Source: a virus. From it: 47,943 nt of DNA. A program made the position numbers and the translations under genes. The number at the start of each line of letters is the position of its first letter. Within the stretch, counting starts at the first letter, position 1. Positions 22,541 through 32,555 of this stretch are shown here, in pieces. The stretch spans positions 1 through 47,943 of the IMG/VR virus record IMGVR_UViG_3300038701_002266. One strand, written 5' to 3'. Under the pieces are notes generated by a model that saw only the letters and a program-made list of their open reading frames with translations, was not told the origin of the DNA and did no database searches.

Positions 22541-22569
22541 CGCCCCGGCTAACGCCGGGGCGTCTTTTT
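22541..22569 (+). terminator. Rho-independent terminator of the early arm
   Basis: Nine-bp GC-rich stem CGCCCCGGC/GCCGGGGCG (22541-22549 with 22554-22562), loop TAAC, then TCTTTTT. It is the strongest intrinsic terminator in the window and ends the rightward early transcript right where the convergent replication operon finishes (its stop is at 22568). Confidence 0.92.
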
Positions 22570-25009
22570 ATGTGGCGCTCTCAATACCTTTGCGCAGCGC
22601 CACCAGCTTGGCAGACGGCTCCTGATCTGCGCGCATCATCATGTGGAACTCTTCAGTGCGCTGCGCCATGCCGATGTCTTGAAACTGCTCGACCATGCGA
22701 GCTTCGCGCACGATGACCTGCGACTTCTGACGGTGCGGTTTGCTGGCGACGTAATGCCGCCCGACGAAGTACCAGTGCTGGCGGATGACGTCGGTCGCCA
22801 TGTTGCGCCACTTGGGATACGTGTCGCGCAGATCGTTCTTGATCAGATACGCGTTCACCCGCTGCAGCACAGCGTCCAGCGCCGCCCAGTCGTACGGCAT
22901 ACCCTCCAGTGCGTCGACAACAATGCTGTCGAACTCTGTCACGTTCGCCTCCAACATCTGCACCTTGCCCTTGAACCGTTTGGCCACGTGCGCGTTGAAG
23001 TCCGACACGTCGCGCTCCATTAGCGTGCGGTGGATCACGGATATGAACTGCGGGTCCATCTCAGGGTTACGCGCCCGGTTGATGTTCTCGATCAGCGGCC
23101 CCGTGGCGTCCAGCTTCACGTCGTTGTTGCTGAGCACCACGATCCGCCGGTCCCCCTCCGGGATAGGCAGGGCATTCTCGTGGTTGGTCGCCATGATGAA
23201 CGTCGCGTAGACTATGTCGTTGTAGTTCGGCTTACCCTTCTGGACGATCTGCATCTGCCGAGGCTTGGGGTCGATGCGTTCTTTCAGCTTCTCGTACGCC
23301 TTCTTCCTGCGCCACGCCATCGACCCGCCGTCGTCCCCTTCTGGTAGTATCTCGTCGACTGTGATGAAGAGCTTGTTGGCCATCCAGTCTGTGTACTGGC
23401 TCTGCGATCCGTTACCCATGAGCGTGTCCGCTGTCACAGACGCCACGTAGCGCTGCGTGAAGAGGTGTTCGATGATCTCGAACAAGGTGCCCCGCCCGAC
23501 GCCGAACACGCGCGCCACCATGAGCACAGCGACGCCGGGGACCTCCGGGTTCTGCACCTTGTGCGCCAGCCAGTCGAGGAACCAGTCGCGCTCCTGCTCC
23601 TCCGGCAGCAGGTGGTCCACGAAGTCGTACCACAGGTTCGTGAAGTAGCTCTCCGTGTCCGTCTCCGGCTCCGGGTGCACAGGCTTGTGGTAGCTGTTAA
23701 TCGCGCGGATGCCTAGCTGGTGGTATATGCCCGGCGTACGATGCGGCATGAAGCGGTAGCCGTCCACATCCTCGCGCTGCCCGTGGTTCAGCCACGCATC
23801 GACAGGGTTGATCTTCACGACGCCGCCGCGCGGTCCCTCTCTCTCATACGCGTGGCGCAGGTGTGTCAGTCTCATGTTCGTCACGCCCATCGACAGGCTC
23901 TCGTCGCGGTAGATCGGCACGCACGGCGTCGCGCTGTTGCCGCACCACGCCCACTGCTCCAGCATCTTGAGGGTCACCTCTCTGAACGACAGCGGCGCGT
24001 CGTTGTACATCTCCTCGTCGAAGCTGTAGCCCGCCGCCTGCAGCTTCTCTGTCAGCGTGGACACCTTCTCGGAGACAGGCTTGTGCCGGTCCTCCTCGCT
24101 GGCGGGCATGTGTCGCTCCCAGCTTGCCGTCTCCAGCACCGTGACGACGCCTTCGTGGTCTGTGCTGATAAGGCACCGCGTACGATTGACCAGCGTCGGA
24201 TCACCCATCCAGCTTCCTGAGCAGCGCGGGTTCCGCGTCGTCGCGTAGTCGGACAGTTCCTCCAGCGTGCGCTGCCGCCCGTCAAGGCAGTCGAACAACA
24301 TGTCGTCCGTCAGATCGTAGACCACGCGGCTGGAGACTTCACCGCTCTTGCTGTGTTTGACGCGTGGCCACTTGCGCTTCTCCAGTTCCTCGCACGCCAT
24401 CTCTGCAATCGCCAGCACCGCGCTCTTCGGTATCAGGGGGAGCGCGTCCAGTCTGACGTCGGCGGGGCTTTCGTCGTCCGCCCACGTATACTCAATCTCG
24501 AAGCCGCTGTCGTCGTCCTTCATGGTGTGCGCGCCGTACGATCCCATCTGTCTAGGGTGGCCACCGCCGAACGCCTCCAGCTTGTGGGCTACAACGCCCA
24601 CGCCCTCCGGGTCCTCGCCGGGGCGGGCGTGCGCCGTCGACACGATGACGCTGAAGGGTTCATCGACGCGGCAGAACCACGCCTCTTTGGCCCCGCTGCC
24701 GAAGCGCACCAGCGCCTCCCGTAGCTGCGGGTAGGTCTTGGTCGCCCTGTCCCACAGCTTGTTGACGATCTCCTCGTCGTCGATGTCGACGTCGATGGCG
24801 CACAACCCATCGCGCACGATGATGCCGGTGGCTTGGAAGCCGAGCTTGCGACGCCATGAGAGGATCATATCCTCCGTCGTCTCTAGCTCTGACCACCCCT
24901 CGTAGAAGCAACGCTTGTCTACGTTCGGCGTCGGCGTATATCCGTTCTCGAGCACGGCCAGCCGGAAGGCAGTCTGCCGCTCGATGTTCTGTTTGCGAAA
25001 ACTTTTCAT
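22568..25009 (-). CDS. Primase-polymerase / SF3-type helicase fusion
   Basis: 813 residues from the ATG at 25009 (a start 36 bases upstream lacks a site). N-terminal half: AEP-type primase-polymerase with the catalytic AIDVDID near residues 75-82, then VSTAHARPGED and LEAFGGGHPRQMGSYGAHT with the conserved His and Gly pattern. C-terminal half: SF3-like ATPase as in DUF5906 phage proteins, with a Walker A region FGVGRGTL at about 501-507, Walker B LFITVDE and sensor MATNHEN. The Walker A Lys is replaced by Arg (GVGRGT). The protein should prime and unwind DNA at the phage origin. Its start overlaps the stop of a 19-codon leader peptide. Confidence 0.88.
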   Translation of the reverse strand: MKSFRKQNIERQTAFRLAVLENGYTPTPNVDKRCFYEGWSELETTEDMILSWRRKLGFQATGIIVRDGLCAIDVDIDDEEIVNKLWDRATKTYPQLREALVRFGSGAKEAWFCRVDEPFSVIVSTAHARPGEDPEGVGVVAHKLEAFGGGHPRQMGSYGAHTMKDDDSGFEIEYTWADDESPADVRLDALPLIPKSAVLAIAEMACEELEKRKWPRVKHSKSGEVSSRVVYDLTDDMLFDCLDGRQRTLEELSDYATTRNPRCSGSWMGDPTLVNRTRCLISTDHEGVVTVLETASWERHMPASEEDRHKPVSEKVSTLTEKLQAAGYSFDEEMYNDAPLSFREVTLKMLEQWAWCGNSATPCVPIYRDESLSMGVTNMRLTHLRHAYEREGPRGGVVKINPVDAWLNHGQREDVDGYRFMPHRTPGIYHQLGIRAINSYHKPVHPEPETDTESYFTNLWYDFVDHLLPEEQERDWFLDWLAHKVQNPEVPGVAVLMVARVFGVGRGTLFEIIEHLFTQRYVASVTADTLMGNGSQSQYTDWMANKLFITVDEILPEGDDGGSMAWRRKKAYEKLKERIDPKPRQMQIVQKGKPNYNDIVYATFIMATNHENALPIPEGDRRIVVLSNNDVKLDATGPLIENINRARNPEMDPQFISVIHRTLMERDVSDFNAHVAKRFKGKVQMLEANVTEFDSIVVDALEGMPYDWAALDAVLQRVNAYLIKNDLRDTYPKWRNMATDVIRQHWYFVGRHYVASKPHRQKSQVIVREARMVEQFQDIGMAQRTEEFHMMMRADQEPSAKLVALRKGIESAT

Positions 25010-25065
25010 TTTGTCTCTTGTGTTAGCAGTGACGTGCCGATACAAGACCTTGTGTTCTCGGTCAT
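25006..25065 (-). CDS. Leader peptide upstream of primase-helicase, 19 aa
   Basis: A short frame MTENTRSCIGTSLLTQETK starts 8 bases after CCTGAAAGG and stops at TGA overlapping the primase ATG (ATGA). The ribosome site is the best one in this leader and is too far from the primase start to serve it directly, so the peptide probably delivers ribosomes to the primase by termination-reinitiation. It is preceded by a stem-loop (25085-25108). The peptide itself may have no function. Confidence 0.6.
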   Translation of the reverse strand: MTENTRSCIGTSLLTQETK

Positions 25066-25084
25066 AGTGGGCACCTTTCAGGTT

Positions 25085-25108
25085 GGGTCGCGCTTTCGGG
25101 CGCGGCCC
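25085..25108 (-). promoter_or_regulatory. Leader hairpin before primase leader peptide
   Basis: A 9-bp stem including one G-U pair, core CGCGC/GCGCG, with loop TTTCGG as written on the plus strand. It lies between the stop of the 98-residue gene (25115) and the CCTGAAAGG ribosome site. It matches the hairpin-plus-CCTGAAAGGA layout of several plus-strand leaders. Confidence 0.5.
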
Positions 25109-25114
25109 TTTCTC

Positions 25115-25411
25115 TTACATGACTGGCCAACCTTGAGTAAACGCCTCAGCCGTTCCGCGCAACAAGATCACGTGGCGATACGTGCCGTCGTCACCTTTGG
25201 CGCAAGTCATAGCGTGTATCTCGTCGTCCATTTTACGCAGTTCATCGGACACCGTAGCGAAGTCTTGCTTCACCTCTTTCAGCAGGCGTGGAAACTGCTG
25301 CCACGTCGGCGCGGTTTCACCACGCCTCCACTCGACGGCGATGTGCATGTCGTGTTCGAACGTGGCGATGACCGCCCAGTCAAAGTCTTCGAATTGTGGC
25401 GGTGCTCCCAT
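25115..25411 (-). CDS. Small replication-operon protein, unknown
   Basis: 98 residues (MGAPPQFEDFDWAVIATFE...). Two beta-like segments (WAVIATFEHDMHIAVEW and YRHVILLRGTAEAF) flank a helical Lys/Glu-rich centre (RLLKEVKQDFATVSDEL). The start shares one base with the stop of the helicase gene (TGATG), so expression is coupled to it. It may be an accessory to the helicase or primase; no family is recognised. Confidence 0.6.
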   Translation of the reverse strand: MGAPPQFEDFDWAVIATFEHDMHIAVEWRRGETAPTWQQFPRLLKEVKQDFATVSDELRKMDDEIHAMTCAKGDDGTYRHVILLRGTAEAFTQGWPVM

Positions 25412-26850
25412 CACAAAGTCCTCAACATGTTTCTGAACGCCTCTTGATCGTTCATCTTGAACTCGACGCGGTTGCGCTTGACGATGTCGACGGTGTTGTT
25501 GGCGATGATCTGGTGCGAGTAGCAGTGCAGGTCTTGCCCCGGTCGGTCGATGCGCTTGATGACCTGATCGTACTGTTCCGCCGACCACGTCGGGTGGAAG
25601 TGGATCATCCGACGACCGCCGAACTGTAGCTCTACCCCGTGCCCGGCGCTGGCGGGGTGCAGGATCAGGTTGTCCAGCTTCCCCTCGTTCCATTTGTCCA
25701 CGATGGCCAGCTTGCGCTTCAAGGTGACGCCGCCACCCAGCACGCCGTACGATCTCTTCTCTTTGTCCAGCACAGCTTTGATCGCGTCGATGTCGGGGCG
25801 GAAACCGTAGGTGATGATTGTGTTCTCCGCGCCGATGTCTGTCAGCATCTGCTCCAGCATCTTGCTCTTCTCCTCGTGCAGCACGTGCGCGATCTTCGTT
25901 GCGTCCTCCTCCTCGGGCGCGTCGTAGATGAAACCCTGTGCGATCTGCGACAGCTTGGAACTGGCGACAGCCTGCGACAGCGCGGCGATCAGGACTGCTT
26001 CGTCTACGTCGCCTGTCGCCTCCATCACTTCGATGATCAGGTCGCGCTCCATCTCGTCGTACTTCTTGCGCGCCTCGTCAGGTAGCTCGATCAAGCGGTC
26101 GTAGTCCTCGCCCGAGGACATCGTACCCTTGCGCGCGTTGGGCGGCTCAGCGGCGCGCACGAACACCTTCGACAGGTCCTCGTCCAACTGCTTGGCGCGA
26201 AAGTCGTGGACCTCCCACGCGTAGCCGCTGTAGTCCATCTGCATGAAGTTGCGGCGACGCCACACGTCGAAGTCGTCTGGCCACGCGTCAGGGTCTAGCA
26301 CCTGCATCGGTCCGAACAGGTCCTCGTATCCGTTGGGGCGCGGCGTGCCGGAGAACATCCACATGATCTTGATCCGGCTGTCGATCCGCTTCAACTGCTT
26401 CTTCATGTGACCGCGCGGGTTCTTCATCTTCGGCTCGTCGTACGCGATCAGGTCGAGCAGCGGGTGGTCCTCCGGCAGCGTGAGCAGGTAGTCGACCAGC
26501 CACTTGACGATGGCGTCGCTGACGCTGAGCACGTCGAAGCTGTCGGGGTCGTCGAGGATCGCTATGCGCTGCTTGGGTGTGCCTGTCAGATCGGCGACGC
26601 GCAGGTGCTGCAGATGCTCCCACTTCGGAGCCTCGCGCGGCCACACAGTGGCGGCGACGAGCGGCGGCGACATGATGATCGCCTTGCGGATGTAACCTTC
26701 ATGGATCAGATCGTCGATGGCTGTAAGGCATGTGACGGTTTTTCCGCCCGCCATCCGCATCACAACGTACGATCTGTTCTTCTGGTATATCTCGTCGATG
26801 CAGGCAAGCTGGTCGGAGCGGAGTAGTCTGTACGGTAAGCGGTCTTTCAT
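25411..26850 (-). CDS. SNF2/DEAD-like SF2 helicase
   Basis: 479 residues with all core SF2 motifs: motif I MAGGKT at about 34-38, motif II YDEPK (DExx), motif III MFSGTPRPNG, motif V HPASAGHGVELQ and motif VI KRIDRPGQD. The Q-V-I-K-R-x-x-R-P-G-Q motif VI is typical of SNF2-related phage proteins found with VRR-NUC, DUF2800 and DUF2815 genes. It probably remodels or translocates on DNA during phage replication or recombination. The ribosome site is CCTGAAAGGACC. It is followed at once by the 98-residue gene (shared A) and preceded by the VRR-NUC gene. Confidence 0.9.
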   Translation of the reverse strand: MKDRLPYRLLRSDQLACIDEIYQKNRSYVVMRMAGGKTVTCLTAIDDLIHEGYIRKAIIMSPPLVAATVWPREAPKWEHLQHLRVADLTGTPKQRIAILDDPDSFDVLSVSDAIVKWLVDYLLTLPEDHPLLDLIAYDEPKMKNPRGHMKKQLKRIDSRIKIMWMFSGTPRPNGYEDLFGPMQVLDPDAWPDDFDVWRRRNFMQMDYSGYAWEVHDFRAKQLDEDLSKVFVRAAEPPNARKGTMSSGEDYDRLIELPDEARKKYDEMERDLIIEVMEATGDVDEAVLIAALSQAVASSKLSQIAQGFIYDAPEEEDATKIAHVLHEEKSKMLEQMLTDIGAENTIITYGFRPDIDAIKAVLDKEKRSYGVLGGGVTLKRKLAIVDKWNEGKLDNLILHPASAGHGVELQFGGRRMIHFHPTWSAEQYDQVIKRIDRPGQDLHCYSHQIIANNTVDIVKRNRVEFKMNDQEAFRNMLRTL

Positions 26851-27412: not shown

Positions 27413-28741
27413 ATGACACAAGAGACACCGACCGAGCACTCGTCCCTCGTCGGCGGTTCAACTGCCGCCCGACGGATCAACTGCCCGCGCAGTTACGCGC
27501 TGGAGAAACTGGCACCGCCTGACAAAGGCAACGCGTACGCCCGTGAGGGGACGGCGCTGCACGAGATGATCGCCATCGTCCTCGACAAGGACAAGGACGC
27601 GGAGGAGCTTCTACCGTTCACCCACAAGCAGGAAGCCAAGGGGGCGGAAGAGCCATGGGAACTGACCATCGACGCCGACCTGTGGGCTGACCTCGGGCAA
27701 CCAGCGCTCGACGCGTTCATGGACTTCATGGACGAGATCGAGGCGGATCAGGACGGCGCGGAGTTTGAGTATTTGATCGAGACGCGGTGCGCGATGCCCG
27801 GTATCGACGGTGCGTTCGGCACGACAGACGTCGTGTGGAAGTGCGGTGATCTGTCAGGCGTGTGGGACTGGAAGTTCGGGCGCACGCCGGTGGCTGCCGA
27901 CAGCGATCAGCTTCGCTTCTACGGACGCTCCGCCGCAGCGGACCATCCGAAGATGTTTGGCGGCGAAAGCTGGGGCGATCTTGACCCCGACCGCGAGGTG
28001 TTCCTCAACATCATGCAGCCTCAGTGCAGCAGCGAACCTGCGGAGCACATCACCACCATCGGCGAACTGGAAGACTTCCGCGTCGAGTTGATGGCGGCGA
28101 TCACAGAGGCGCAGGAGCAGGGGGAGAAAGCACGGATCGCTAAAGGTGGTTGGTGCACCTTCGCCACCTGCAAGAGCGTGTGCCCGCTGCACATAGGTCG
28201 GTCGCTGGAGTTCGGCGAGAAGATGGCCAAGCTGGCAGCGCTGAAGGAAGCGCAGGGGGAGAAGGAACTGCGCGACGTAACGTACGAAGACCCGTACGTC
28301 GACGGCGTGGGGTCGCAGTCGTTTGGCGACATGGCACCGGACCTGCTCGAACTGGCGGAGATCGCGGAGGAGTTCGCGCGCGAAGTGTTCAAGCAGGCGC
28401 ACGCGTGGGTCGAGGAAGGAAACGATCTCGACGGCTGGGGGCTGAAGAAGAAACGCTCCAGCGGGCGCGTGTTTACCGTGTCCGATGAAGAGGTGCAGTC
28501 CTTTATGAAGAACCGCCGCTACAAGCTAGACGACTACATGCCCCGCAAGATGTTGACGATGCCACAGGTCGAGAAGCTGCTGGCGCGCGACGGGCGTGTG
28601 CTCCCCGAAGAAATGTACGAGGCCAAGCCCTCGTCAGGAACGACCCTCGTCCGTGTCGGCGACGCCGAACTGGTGGGGTCGAAGACCCAGCGCGTAGCAG
28701 CGCTGGCGCAGAAGCTGGGCGTCGCTGAAGACGCCGAGTAA
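27413..28741 (+). CDS. DUF2800 PD-(D/E)XK nuclease-like protein
   Basis: 442 residues. The opening SSLVGGSTAARRINCPRS and AYAREGTALHEM (G-x-x-x-H motif, about 42-53) lead to a RecB/Cas4-type nuclease core: GTTDVVW near 138, VWDWKFGRTPV near 150-160 with the D-x-K pair, and DQLRFYG. A C-terminal Cys group (CTFATCKSVCP) could bind an iron-sulfur cluster or zinc, as in Cas4/AddB relatives. DUF2800 genes regularly precede DUF2815 and family A polymerase genes. The likely role is DNA end processing in replication or recombination. The ribosome site is CCTGAAGGA. Confidence 0.9.
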   Translation: MTQETPTEHSSLVGGSTAARRINCPRSYALEKLAPPDKGNAYAREGTALHEMIAIVLDKDKDAEELLPFTHKQEAKGAEEPWELTIDADLWADLGQPALDAFMDFMDEIEADQDGAEFEYLIETRCAMPGIDGAFGTTDVVWKCGDLSGVWDWKFGRTPVAADSDQLRFYGRSAAADHPKMFGGESWGDLDPDREVFLNIMQPQCSSEPAEHITTIGELEDFRVELMAAITEAQEQGEKARIAKGGWCTFATCKSVCPLHIGRSLEFGEKMAKLAALKEAQGEKELRDVTYEDPYVDGVGSQSFGDMAPDLLELAEIAEEFAREVFKQAHAWVEEGNDLDGWGLKKKRSSGRVFTVSDEEVQSFMKNRRYKLDDYMPRKMLTMPQVEKLLARDGRVLPEEMYEAKPSSGTTLVRVGDAELVGSKTQRVAALAQKLGVAEDAE

Positions 28742-28782
28742 ACCGGGGCAGTGTCCCTACAAAAGAGAAGAGAAGAGAGAAG

Positions 28783-29577
28783 ATGTCAAAAGAAGTAGCG
28801 AAAGCAAAGAACTCCGCGCTCGCCGCAGCGCAGGCGCTGAAAGGTAACCTGCAGAAGGCGAAGCGGAACATCCCCGAGGCGGGCAACAGTTCGTACATGC
28901 GGTTCGGTAAGGACGGCGCGTGGACGTTCGGCGTCGACAACGACGAACTGGTGCCGGAGGATCGCATTGCGATCAACCCTATGTCGATCAAGACTGGTTG
29001 GTCTTGCTGGACAGATCGCGACGACAGGGTGAAGAAGAAGAACGAGCTTATGGGTGAGGCCATGTTCCCGTTGGGCGCAGACGTCACCCCCAAGCACGAG
29101 CTTCCGAAGCACAAAGACCCGTTGACGGATGAGCCGTGCGACTGGCGTGAGCAGACCAGCGTGGTGATGCGCGTTCTCGATGGCCCCCACAAGGGGAAAC
29201 AGATCGAGTACAGCACCACGTCTGTGGGCGGCAACACCGCGCTCAGTGGTCTGGTCGACCAGATCATGTTGCAGCTTGACGAGGACCCGGAGAACATTGT
29301 CCCCGTGGTGTCGTTGGACAGCGACAGCTACATGCACAAGCGGTGGGGCAAGACGTACGTCCCCATCCTGAAGGTGACGGGCTTCGTGTCGATGGACGAC
29401 CAGCCGGAGATCAACCCGGAGACGCCAGACGATGACGACGAAGACGCAGCCGATGACATCCAGCAGGATGAAGACGGCGACGTGATCGACGGCACCGCCG
29501 AGGAGATCGAAGAGGAAGAGGAAGCGGAAGAAGAGGCGGAGGAGGAACCCAAACCTCGCCGCCGCCGCCGCCGCTAA
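28783..29577 (+). CDS. DUF2815 single-stranded DNA-binding protein
   Basis: 264 residues. After a helical start (VAKAKNSALAAAQALKGN) comes the OB-fold-like body with YMRFGKDGAWTFGVDNDELV, WSCWTDRDDR and WREQTSVVMRVLDGPHKGKQIEYSTTS, given in parts as seen in this family, which replaces gp2.5-like SSBs. Residues about 205-256 are almost all Asp/Glu, like the acidic tail of SSBs that recruits partners. Unusually, the chain ends in six Arg (PRRRRRR). It lies between DUF2800 and the polymerase. The protein would coat single-stranded DNA at the fork. Confidence 0.9.
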   Translation: MSKEVAKAKNSALAAAQALKGNLQKAKRNIPEAGNSSYMRFGKDGAWTFGVDNDELVPEDRIAINPMSIKTGWSCWTDRDDRVKKKNELMGEAMFPLGADVTPKHELPKHKDPLTDEPCDWREQTSVVMRVLDGPHKGKQIEYSTTSVGGNTALSGLVDQIMLQLDEDPENIVPVVSLDSDSYMHKRWGKTYVPILKVTGFVSMDDQPEINPETPDDDDEDAADDIQQDEDGDVIDGTAEEIEEEEEAEEEAEEEPKPRRRRRR

Positions 29578-29640: not shown

Positions 29641-30891
29641 ATGTTACGAACAATGGAACCGCTGACCACGGACTTCAACGACTACTGTTTTCTGGACACG
29701 GAGACGCGCGCGCTGAAGGACTTGGACGACCCCCGCTGGGGCGACGTCACACAGTGCGGCGCGATGCGCTACCGCTCCTCCGCCAAGGTCACGATCCTCA
29801 CCTACTGCATCGGCCCCAAGCAGCCCGTCCAGTCTTGGGTGCTGCCCGACTTCGACGACGTGTTGAAGTGGCGCGACGCGCCGCGCGATCTGCTGGACTT
29901 CGTGGCGCGCGCGCTTAACGGCGAAGCATGGTTCGTGATGTGGAACAGTTTCTTCGATAGGCACCTGTGCAATCATGGTATCTTCCGCGACATGGATCGC
30001 GAAGTCATGCCCGTTCGTACGGTGCTTGACGCGATGGTCCAAGGCGCGGCGTCGAACCTGCCCGGTAAGCTGGAGGGTGCATCGCGCGCCATCGGGCGCG
30101 GCGGCAAGGTCGACCAAGGCAAGCACCTGATCGCGCTGTTCGCCCCCGCCTACGGGGCGACGCCGCAGTCTCACCCCGAAGAGTGGAAGCAGTTCATCTA
30201 TTACGCGGAGCAGGACACAGAAGAACTGCGCGCCGTGTTCCTCGAAACCCGGATGCTGTGGCGCTGGGAGTGGGAGCAGTTCTGGACCAGCGAAGAGATC
30301 AACGACCGTGGCTTACCTATCGACCGACACTTCGCCGAGCGCGCCGCAGGTCTGGCGGAGGTGTACGCCTCGAAGACGAACGAACTTGTTGAAGAGTTCA
30401 CACGCGGCGCTTGCTGGTCTGTGAACCAACACGTCGCTCTGGCGAAGCACGTCGCCGACGAGGTGGCACATCTGCCGGAGGCGGCGGACATGCTCGTGAA
30501 GAAGTACGAGGAGGACGAGGAGGGAGACGGACTAGTCGCAGCGGCGCTGTCGCTGGAGCGGACCCGCGTGGAGAAGTTGATCCCTTACCTCGAGCGTCTG
30601 GACGCGGAGCAGGGGTTGACCGACGACGAGTACGATGTGCTCCAGCTTCTCGAGGTGCGGCTGTTCGGTGCGTCAGCGACGCCCAAGAAGTTCGCCAAGC
30701 TCGTGCCGATGCTCGACGACCGCGAGCGGTTATGCGGTCAATACACTTTCAACGGTGCCCAGCAGACTGGACGCTATTCATCGCGCGGCGTGCAGGTACA
30801 CAACCTGACGCGCGCGTTCCTCGGTATGGAGCAGGGCGAGCCTGAACGCGAAGCCGCCGCCATCGAATTTATCAGCGATTGGGAGAACTGA
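29641..30891 (+). CDS. Family A DNA polymerase, N-terminal (exonuclease) half
   Basis: 416 residues. The 3-prime to 5-prime exonuclease motifs are complete: FLDTE with D19/E21, WNSFFDR with N102/D106, and YAEQD with Y188/D192. The palm-thumb part follows through FNGAQQTGRYSSRGVQVHNLT, given here as GAQQTGRYSSRGVQ, the conserved Family A segment before motif A, and the chain stops at ISDWEN just where motif A should follow. That motif is in the gene at 31126, in the same frame. The stop is followed one base later by the start of a membrane-protein gene. The exonuclease half probably works only with the other half as a two-chain enzyme. Confidence 0.9.
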   Translation: MLRTMEPLTTDFNDYCFLDTETRALKDLDDPRWGDVTQCGAMRYRSSAKVTILTYCIGPKQPVQSWVLPDFDDVLKWRDAPRDLLDFVARALNGEAWFVMWNSFFDRHLCNHGIFRDMDREVMPVRTVLDAMVQGAASNLPGKLEGASRAIGRGGKVDQGKHLIALFAPAYGATPQSHPEEWKQFIYYAEQDTEELRAVFLETRMLWRWEWEQFWTSEEINDRGLPIDRHFAERAAGLAEVYASKTNELVEEFTRGACWSVNQHVALAKHVADEVAHLPEAADMLVKKYEEDEEGDGLVAAALSLERTRVEKLIPYLERLDAEQGLTDDEYDVLQLLEVRLFGASATPKKFAKLVPMLDDRERLCGQYTFNGAQQTGRYSSRGVQVHNLTRAFLGMEQGEPEREAAAIEFISDWEN

Positions 30892-30892
30892 A

Positions 30893-31129
30893 ATGGATCG
30901 TATAGTTAGAATGTTATCGGCGTTAAACCATTGGTTGGACAGCCGGTCGTGGGCCGCAGAGTTCGTTGGCTGGACGTTTACGCTTCTGGTCATCGCGTAC
31001 GCTGCTGTGGTATTGGTGTGCTTCGTACTCTGGGACATCGGCGCGCTTCAGAGCGCGGGTACGCACCGTGGTCTCTTAGCGGGCGCGATTTTCATATCGG
31101 TCTTTTTCTCAGCGAGAACAAGCAAATGA
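30893..31129 (+). CDS. Small membrane protein inserted within the polymerase
   Basis: 78 residues with two predicted membrane spans (about 24-48, FVGWTFTLLVIAYAAVVLVCFVLW in two parts, and about 60-73, LLAGAIFISVFF). Codon choice at its start (ATC/TTA/GTT/AAA-rich) is more AT-rich than in the flanking polymerase codons. It begins one base after the stop of the N-terminal polymerase gene (TGA-A-ATG) and ends overlapping the start of the C-terminal gene (ATGA). The insert length is a multiple of three and both halves keep one frame. It may be a recent acquisition, a membrane anchor for the replisome, or a holin-like early protein. Confidence 0.7.
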   Translation: MDRIVRMLSALNHWLDSRSWAAEFVGWTFTLLVIAYAAVVLVCFVLWDIGALQSAGTHRGLLAGAIFISVFFSARTSK

Positions 31130-32196
31130 TCGGAGACAGAGAGCTAGCCGCCTTCGAAGACCGCTTCGGCTCCGCCGGTCGCGCCTTGTCGCGGCTGATC
31201 CGCCCCACTATAGCCGCGCCCGAGGGTCGTACGTTGGTGTGGGGTGACTGGTCCGCTATCGAAGCCCGCGTCCTGCCTTGGCTCGCCGACACACGCGGCG
31301 CGCACAAGGTGCTGGACATCTTCCGCGCATCCGACGCCGACCCGTCGGTGCCTGACATCTACATGGTGGAAGCTGGCAACGTGCTGGGGATGGACCCGCA
31401 GGAGATGTGGGACAAGTACCGCGCCAAGGACAAGGACGCCAAGCAATGGCGGCAGCAGGGCAAGGTGCCTGTGCTGTCGCTGGGCTTCGGCGGCGGCGTC
31501 GGCGCGCTGCAAGCCATGGCCACCAACTACGGCGTGTCGCTGACCGCAGCGGAGGCGCAGGTCGTGGTCGATGTGTGGCGCGAGAACAACCGGTGGGCGC
31601 GCGCCTTCTGGGACGCGCTCTGGGACGCCTTCCTATCGGCGATGAAGAACCCCGGCGTGCCGTACGAAGTGGGGCGCGTGGTGTACATGTACGACGCCGA
31701 CTACATGAACGGGTCGATGATGTGCTTCCTGCCTGACGGCAGGCCGCTCTGTTATCCCCGCCTGAAGTGGAGAGAACGCGAGCGTGAGGACCGAGAAGGG
31801 AACGTCACGAAACGGATGGAGTTGACCTACCGCCGAGGCTACGACACCCGCTCCTTATGGTACGGTGTACTCGCTGAGAACATCACACAGGCGTGCGCCG
31901 GATCGCTGCTGCGTGAGGTGATGGTGGACCTGTCGCCCGCGATCTCTATCGCCGAGGCGCGTTGGATCACAGGTCCACGTCCGACCCCGACGCCCCGTCT
32001 CCTATCGTCGCCCGCTGAACTGATCGGTCACACGCACGACGAGGTGATCGCCGAGTGCGACGACAACGACGACGCTGTCGCCTTAGCGAAGAAAGAACTG
32101 AACGACGCAATGGTCGCGGATCGCGACTGGACCGAAGGCTTGCCGCTCGCGGCGGAGGTCTCGACTAACTGGTACTACACAAAGGTGGTGGACTAA
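31126..32196 (+). CDS. Family A DNA polymerase, C-terminal (polymerase) half
   Basis: 356 residues. Motif A is VWGDWSAIEARVLPWLA with the catalytic Asp at residue 41; motif B KQWRQQGKVPVLSLGFG at about 106-123; motif C IGHTHDEVIAE with D305/E306. All residues for nucleotidyl transfer are present. I take the ATG at 31126, whose first base pairs with the previous stop (ATGA); an in-frame GTG at 30931 lies inside the membrane-protein gene and would create a mixed protein. Together with the 29641-30891 product it rebuilds a normal polymerase of about 770 residues. It is followed directly by the nucleotide hydrolase gene (shared A). Confidence 0.92.
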   Translation: MIGDRELAAFEDRFGSAGRALSRLIRPTIAAPEGRTLVWGDWSAIEARVLPWLADTRGAHKVLDIFRASDADPSVPDIYMVEAGNVLGMDPQEMWDKYRAKDKDAKQWRQQGKVPVLSLGFGGGVGALQAMATNYGVSLTAAEAQVVVDVWRENNRWARAFWDALWDAFLSAMKNPGVPYEVGRVVYMYDADYMNGSMMCFLPDGRPLCYPRLKWREREREDREGNVTKRMELTYRRGYDTRSLWYGVLAENITQACAGSLLREVMVDLSPAISIAEARWITGPRPTPTPRLLSSPAELIGHTHDEVIAECDDNDDAVALAKKELNDAMVADRDWTEGLPLAAEVSTNWYYTKVVD

Positions 32197-32555
32197 TGGA
32201 CAACGAAGACACATGGACCGAAGGCGTGAAGCATGACAGCGGGAAGGACCGCTTTGAACTAGTCCCGCCGGAACCACTGTTCGCGCTGGCACGCGTGCTG
32301 ACGTTCGGCGCGCAGAAGTATGAAGACCGGAACTGGGAGAAGGGGATGTCGTGGGGGCGCTGCTTCGGTGCGTGTATGCGGCACCTGTGGGCGTGGTGGG
32401 GCGGACAAGGGAAGACGGCGAACAGCTTCCTGTTGGGCGACCTCGACGACGAGACAGGGTTCTCCCACCTATGGCACGCGATGTGCTGCCTGTCCTTCTT
32501 GATCGCGTACGAAGAACGCGGCGTCGGAACCGACGACCGTCACACAGGAGGCTGA
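32196..32555 (+). CDS. dATP/dGTP diphosphohydrolase-like protein (MazZ-type)
   Basis: 119 residues with the pattern GVKHDSGKDRFELVPPEPLF, given in part as KHDSGKDRFELVPPEPL, then VLTFGAQKYEDRNWEKG, RHLWAWW and DETGFSHLWHAMC. This is the all-alpha diphosphohydrolase domain of the MazZ family, in which Lys-Tyr-x-x-x-N-W and Glu/His residues bind the metal and purine dNTP. In phages with 2-aminoadenine DNA it works with PurZ to remove dATP or supply dGMP. No PurZ-like gene is present here, so pool control is the safer reading. It overlaps the polymerase stop by one base. Confidence 0.75.
   Translation: MDNEDTWTEGVKHDSGKDRFELVPPEPLFALARVLTFGAQKYEDRNWEKGMSWGRCFGACMRHLWAWWGGQGKTANSFLLGDLDDETGFSHLWHAMCCLSFLIAYEERGVGTDDRHTGG

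What the first reader, a model, noticed from the sequence alone, without database searches (positions are those of the whole stretch)
29641..32196. Family A DNA polymerase split in two by a membrane-protein gene
Exonuclease motifs and the pre-motif-A segment are in one gene, motifs A, B and C in another, both in the same frame. A 78-codon gene for a two-span membrane protein lies exactly between them, with one-base and ATGA junctions. Family members are single chains. In phage HMO-2011 the same inter-domain point carries a DnaJ-like insertion (established knowledge, recalled and not checked). The layout suggests a two-subunit polymerase that may be tethered to the membrane, or a very recent insertion. 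Splicing of the 234-base insert would also restore one chain and cannot be excluded.
Basis: partly seen in the sequence, partly recalled or inferred. Interest (0 to 1): 0.78.

Follow-up and report, generated by a model that had tools for sequence, protein, structure and literature searches.

The report
Phage DNA polymerase in two genes
This uncultured phage makes its DNA-copying enzyme as two separate proteins instead of the usual one, and related phages keep the two genes kilobases apart or even on opposite strands, so the enzyme must be put together from two pieces; the small membrane-protein gene between them looks like an unrelated later arrival.

Summary
The split is real. The exonuclease half (29641-30891), a 78-codon ORF (30893-31129) and the catalytic half (31126-32196) lie exactly as described, with exonuclease and polymerase motifs intact. 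Two of the three closest relatives (L002, L003; 66-71% identical) have the same split with an ATGA overlap and no insert; the next (L004) is fused. In all, 12 other contigs carry both halves as separate genes: 2 overlapping, 5 with 0.3-2.9 kb of other genes between, 1 with the halves 6 kb apart, and 4 (3 distinct phages) with the halves on opposite strands. Both halves are under purifying selection and have correlated divergence. Rfam finds no intron here, but finds one in the control phage Mic1. A confident model of fused L004 puts the split in a loop of a two-helix insertion absent from Pol I. A split family A polymerase with a small ORF between is already published (OM43 phages MEP401/402), but in another subfamily and with splicing unresolved. 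Verdict: new variant of a known kind. The membrane ORF has no detectable relatives.

The parts
29641..30891 (+). Polymerase N-half (416 aa): 3'-5' exonuclease, thumb and first palm element with the TGRYSS motif
   Evidence: PHROG 17 E=1.5e-26
30766..30774 (+). TGR of the TGRYSS motif, the last conserved polymerase motif in the N-half
30881..30885 (+). GGGAG Shine-Dalgarno-like site inside the last codons of the N-half. The same place holds GGAG in L002, L003, L006, L017, L033, L101 and L115, where it serves whichever gene follows
30893..31129 (+). 78-aa ORF between the halves, predicted small membrane protein; no relative found; GC 54% against 63-65% in the flanks
30974..31030 (+). Strong hydrophobic segment of the 78-aa ORF (aa 28-46, mean hydropathy 2.7)
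31070..31114 (+). Second, short hydrophobic segment of the 78-aa ORF (aa 60-74)
31126..31129 (+). ATGA stop/start overlap coupling the 78-aa ORF to the C-half
31126..32196 (+). Polymerase C-half (356 aa): rest of palm and fingers, motifs A, B and C
   Evidence: PHROG 17 E=1.3e-36
31246..31248 (+). Motif A catalytic Asp codon (VWGDWSAIEAR, D41)
32035..32043 (+). Motif C His-Asp-Glu codons (HTHDE, 304-306)
32196..32555 (+). Downstream coupled gene: dATP/dGTP diphosphohydrolase
   Evidence: PF18909 E=2.2e-33
27413..29577 (+). Upstream genes of the same replication module: DUF2800 exonuclease-like (27413-28741) and phrog_9528 protein (28783-29577)

Best explanation
The phage's replicative family A DNA polymerase is made as two polypeptides that fold against each other without a covalent link: an exonuclease/thumb/first-palm-element subunit (29641-30891) and a palm/fingers catalytic subunit (31126-32196). 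The break lies in a loop between two helices of a family-specific insertion in front of motif A, so neither the exonuclease motifs nor motifs A-C are touched. The last codons of the first gene carry a Shine-Dalgarno site that couples translation to the next ORF. In the closest relatives that ORF is the second polymerase gene; here a 78-codon gene for a small membrane protein was inserted at the coupled junction and took over the site, and the C-half now starts by ATGA coupling from that gene. Shown: the split, intact motifs, the same split in relatives with no, different or opposite-strand neighbours, purifying selection, correlated divergence, and no detectable intron. Inferred: non-covalent assembly, activity, and the order of split and insertion. 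The function of the membrane protein is unknown; an unrelated host-interaction or exclusion gene is my guess.
For: L002 and L003 have the same split with ATGA and no insert. Halves lie on opposite strands in the contigs of L019, L033 and L042/L043, with a single copy of each half, apart from the intein-interrupted C-half of L019, which gives two matches. Elsewhere the halves are separated by 0.3-6 kb of unrelated genes: GapR-like, calcineurin-like phosphoesterase, N6/N4 methylase. N-halves end at the same alignment position in nearly all. dN/dS is about 0.15-0.24 in both halves among window/L002/L003. Distances of the two halves correlate: r=0.87 (Mantel p=5e-5), and r=0.97 (p=0.003) in genomes with the halves at least 2 kb apart or on opposite strands. 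AlphaFold of fused L004 (pLDDT 92.7) matches Klenow (Z about 24); the split at residue 417 lies between helices 402-412 and 421-431, where confidence dips. Aquifex Pol I has no residues for that insertion. No Rfam intron in the window, while Mic1 gives RF00028 at E=1e-9.
Against: No protein or activity data. All split members of this group are metagenomic contigs and reads were not examined. The tree does not give polarity: the sister L004 is fused and a single origin of all splits is rejected, so re-splitting or re-fusion must have occurred. Correlated divergence is also expected from shared genome history.
Confidence: 0.8

Rival explanations
1. The membrane protein is a functional third component that tethers the split polymerase to the membrane.
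For: It lies exactly between the halves, with coupled junctions at both sides. Small one-span proteins also follow the exonuclease half in L022, L101 and L006, more often than the roughly 7.5% of small ORFs in these loci that look membrane-spanning by a crude count.
Against: Absent in the nearest relatives L002 and L003. Other split phages have a soluble GapR-like protein, a phosphoesterase or a helicase there. No relatives of the 78-aa protein were found. The three other membrane proteins come from one subclade and show no clear sequence similarity (L022 against L101).
Confidence: 0.06
2. The 234-base insert is a self-splicing intron and a single chain is made.
For: The insert length is a multiple of three and both halves are in the same frame. 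Mic1 has a group I intron between its polymerase halves.
Against: No Rfam match in the region even at E up to 5, or at gathering threshold in the whole window. Removing the insert alone would still leave the TGA stop unless the boundaries shift. L002 and L003 have no insert and are still in two frames. Halves on opposite strands in three distinct phages cannot be cis-spliced.
Confidence: 0.03
3. The halves are joined after translation (split intein), or a fused protein is made by frameshift or readthrough.
For: Inteins occur in the C-halves of L017-L019; split PolB in Nanoarchaeum could be trans-spliced (PMC4104785).
Against: The N-half has only a few residues after the last shared helix and the C-half starts a few residues before its first, so there is no room for intein parts. 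Readthrough in the window must pass the stop at 30889-30891 and a second in-frame stop ending at 30909 (ORF bounds). The frames differ in L002 and L003.
Confidence: 0.03
4. The polymerase is a decaying pseudogene or an assembly error and the phage uses another polymerase.
For: Split genes can be remnants.
Against: Purifying selection on both halves, all motifs kept, the same split in many independent assemblies, and only one Pfam family A match in the window.
Confidence: 0.05

Closest known systems
OM43 phages MEP401/MEP402 split DNA polymerase (gp13/gp14/gp15; PMC10580990)
   Same: Family A polymerase in two genes with a small ORF between, broken between the TGR motif and motif A; no Rfam intron there either
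   Different: Short T7-like subfamily, broken directly at motif A; the 77-aa ORF looks soluble and unrelated. The authors left the intron question open and reported no members with separated halves.
Microcystis phage Mic1 polymerase gamma (ORF85/86; PMC7156551)
   Same: Exonuclease and polymerase parts annotated as two ORFs, with the break at motif A
   Different: A group I intron (RF00028, E=1e-9) cuts inside motif A; a single chain is expected
Methanobacteriales split PolB (Kelman et al. 1999, cited in PMC4104785)
   Same: A replicative polymerase encoded as two separate genes
   Different: Family B, archaeal, ascribed to intein loss
HMO-2011-type DNA polymerase (PMC9038755)
   Same: Family A; extra material between exonuclease and polymerase domains
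   Different: An in-chain partial DnaJ domain with two CXXCXGXG motifs, not a gene split; none of these motifs here
Unsplit polymerases of Nostoc phage Nsp-JY18 and Microcystis phage Mel-JY33
   Same: Nearest isolated relatives (44-46% identity), same family and same long linker before motif A
   Different: Single 748-aa chain

Membership tests
Family A DNA polymerase | Motifs A, B and C, with DEDD exonuclease motifs I-III | tested here: met
   PHROG 17 on both halves. Pfam DNA_pol_A matches the C-half only below its cut-off
Family A DNA polymerase | Klenow-like fold | tested here: met
   Model of fused relative L004 (56-61% identical), Z about 24 to Klenow; the window's own halves were not folded
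Family A DNA polymerase | Exonuclease and polymerase in one chain (usual, not obligatory) | tested here: not met
   relatives
Group I intron interruption (Mic1 type) | Intron_gpI covariance match between the coding parts | tested here: not met
   positive control
Split intein gene | Intein halves at the end of the N-part and the start of the C-part | tested here: not met
   The parts end and start within a few residues of shared polymerase sequence
MEP401-type split polymerase | Break between TGR motif and motif A with a small ORF between | tested here: met
MEP401-type split polymerase | Related inserted ORF | tested here: not met
   MEP401 gp14 looks soluble and shows no visible similarity to P0002; compared by eye only
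HMO-2011-type polymerase | DnaJ-like domain with CXXCXGXG motifs | tested here: not met
   No such motif in the sequences
Two-subunit polymerase | Physical association of the halves and activity needing both | not testable with these tools
   needs expression and pull-down

The most novel reading that the evidence does not exclude
Small membrane proteins placed behind the exonuclease half (here, L022, L101, L006) are unrelated in sequence but share a role, anchoring or regulating a two-part family A replicase at the cell membrane.
Probability: 0.06. Interest if true: 0.82.

Novelty: new variant of a known kind. Interest (0 to 1): 0.55.

Why it matters
Family A polymerases are textbook single chains. 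Relatives with the two halves on opposite strands, and no tie between them but function, argue for a natural two-subunit replicase in this group. That gives a ready-made system for split-polymerase work and for asking how the exonuclease half docks on the catalytic half. The loop before motif A appears to be a repeated breaking and joining point: at least two changes within this family, plus a separate split in MEP401-like phages. For annotation, it warns that half-polymerases in phage genomes need not be fragments or intron products.

Tried and rejected
Intron: Rfam in permissive mode gave only three weak sub-threshold matches, none to an intron family. Relatives of the 78-aa protein: none in phages, viral contigs, Pfam or PHROGs. 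Prophage relatives in GTDB genomes: one short match only, not pursued. Direct repeat at the two insert junctions (TCAGCGA..GA..AAATG.ATCG): score reached by about 2% of random pairs, too weak to use. A single origin of all splits: rejected by AU test, p=5e-6. Homology of the L022 and L101 membrane proteins: no significant match. A Pfam call with a wrong reading frame failed and was redone. Further scans for split members found no new contigs. Literature searches for functional split family A enzymes found only MEP401/402 and Mic1; the library lacks most subscription journals.

Full report
Observation. PHROG 17 (DNA polymerase) matches both halves with consecutive profile ranges. Exonuclease motifs I-III and the TGRYSS motif lie in the first gene; motifs A, B and C lie in the second. 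They are conserved across relatives. Codon-position composition fits the stated frame of the 78-aa ORF (GC3 0.65, highest of the three positions) better than the other two frames. Its coding status is likely but not proven: there are no relatives, and 3.5% of shuffles stay open that long.

Relatives. Scans of IMG/VR gave 12 other contigs in which both halves are found as separate genes. L002 and L003, the nearest, are split with ATGA and nothing between. L007, L017, L022, L006 and L101 have about 0.3-2.9 kb of other genes between: a calcineurin-like phosphoesterase (L007), a GapR-like DNA-binding protein (L017), an N6/N4 DNA methylase plus a one-span protein (L101), and others. L093 has about 6 kb between. 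In L033, L019 and the near-identical pair L042/L043 the halves are on opposite strands, each present once except that the L019 C-half is interrupted by an intein-like insert. Four further contigs hold only one half, and as fragments they say nothing about absence. L004, sister to the window group, is fused (757 aa), as are the nearest isolated phages (Nsp-JY18, Mel-JY33).

What this means. Opposite-strand halves cannot be joined by cis splicing, and adjacent halves without an insert show that the insert is not what breaks the gene. The N-halves end at the same alignment position in nearly all cases, and in most of them the last codons hold a GGAG-type Shine-Dalgarno site that serves whichever gene follows. 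In the window the membrane ORF uses that site. The simplest reading is a coupled pair of polymerase genes into whose junction other genes were inserted. Both halves evolve under purifying selection (pS 0.6 against pN 0.2, dN/dS about 0.15-0.24), and their divergence is correlated even where they are far apart. Shared genome history would also produce that correlation.

Structure. The AlphaFold model of fused L004 with 34 relatives (pLDDT 92.7, pTM 0.91) matches Klenow and other Pol I structures. The split corresponds to residue 417, in the loop between helices 402-412 and 421-431, where confidence dips to 79. Against Aquifex Pol I the profile jumps from position 371 to 407 with almost no residues in the chain, so the split lies in a roughly 35-residue insertion typical of this phage group. 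The TGR arginine to motif A aspartate distance is 81 residues in L004.

Evolution. On a 47-row tree of both halves, the window, L002 and L003 form a clade (99/92) with fused L004 as sister (100/99) inside a mostly fused group. Other split members sit elsewhere, and holding all splits together is rejected. There were therefore at least two changes, either repeated splitting at one linker or re-fusion; the tree cannot say which.

Intron and intein. Rfam finds nothing intron-like in the window or MEP401 but finds the group I intron in Mic1, so the test works. Neither half carries room for intein parts.

Membrane protein. It has one strong and one short hydrophobic segment, lower GC than its flanks and no relatives. 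Small one-span proteins follow the exonuclease half in L022 and L101 and come second in L006, all from one subclade. This keeps the tether idea alive at low probability, but the nearest relatives lack such a gene.

Known work. MEP401/402 (PMC10580990) are the closest published case, with a polymerase in two genes, a small unknown ORF between and the intron question left open. Mic1 (PMC7156551) is an intron case. Split PolB of Methanobacteriales (PMC4104785) is the analogue in another family. I therefore rate this a new variant of a known kind.

Noticed in passing
L017:3024-4976, L018:2765-5887, L019:4001-5836: Intein-like inserts of roughly 250-285 aa in the polymerase before the ENVTQ/ENGTQ segment, ending in HNC; present in both split and fused members.
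   Followed up: partly
L089:4000-7731: The fused polymerase has two long inserts, one near the TGR motif and one before motif C, consistent with two inteins.
   Followed up: no
L137:1645-4755: A long in-frame insert between motifs A and B of a fused polymerase.
   Followed up: no
L155:11113-11385 (Microcystis phage Mic1): The published intron between the polymerase gamma ORFs matches the group I model just under the Rfam gathering score (45.5 bits against 50).
   Followed up: yes
L040:4769-6936: The N-half region is broken into two overlapping frames (a frameshift), possibly a sequencing error or a further split.
   Followed up: no
window 22568-26850 (minus strand): Rest of the replication module on the opposite strand: DUF5906 primase/helicase-like protein and SNF2-type helicase.
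   Followed up: partly
window 30861-30910 and 31100-31150: Weak direct repeat around the two ends of the 234-base insert (about 2% by chance).
   Followed up: partly
L042 and L043: Nearly identical phages from two samples with divergently oriented polymerase halves about 3 kb apart.
   Followed up: partly
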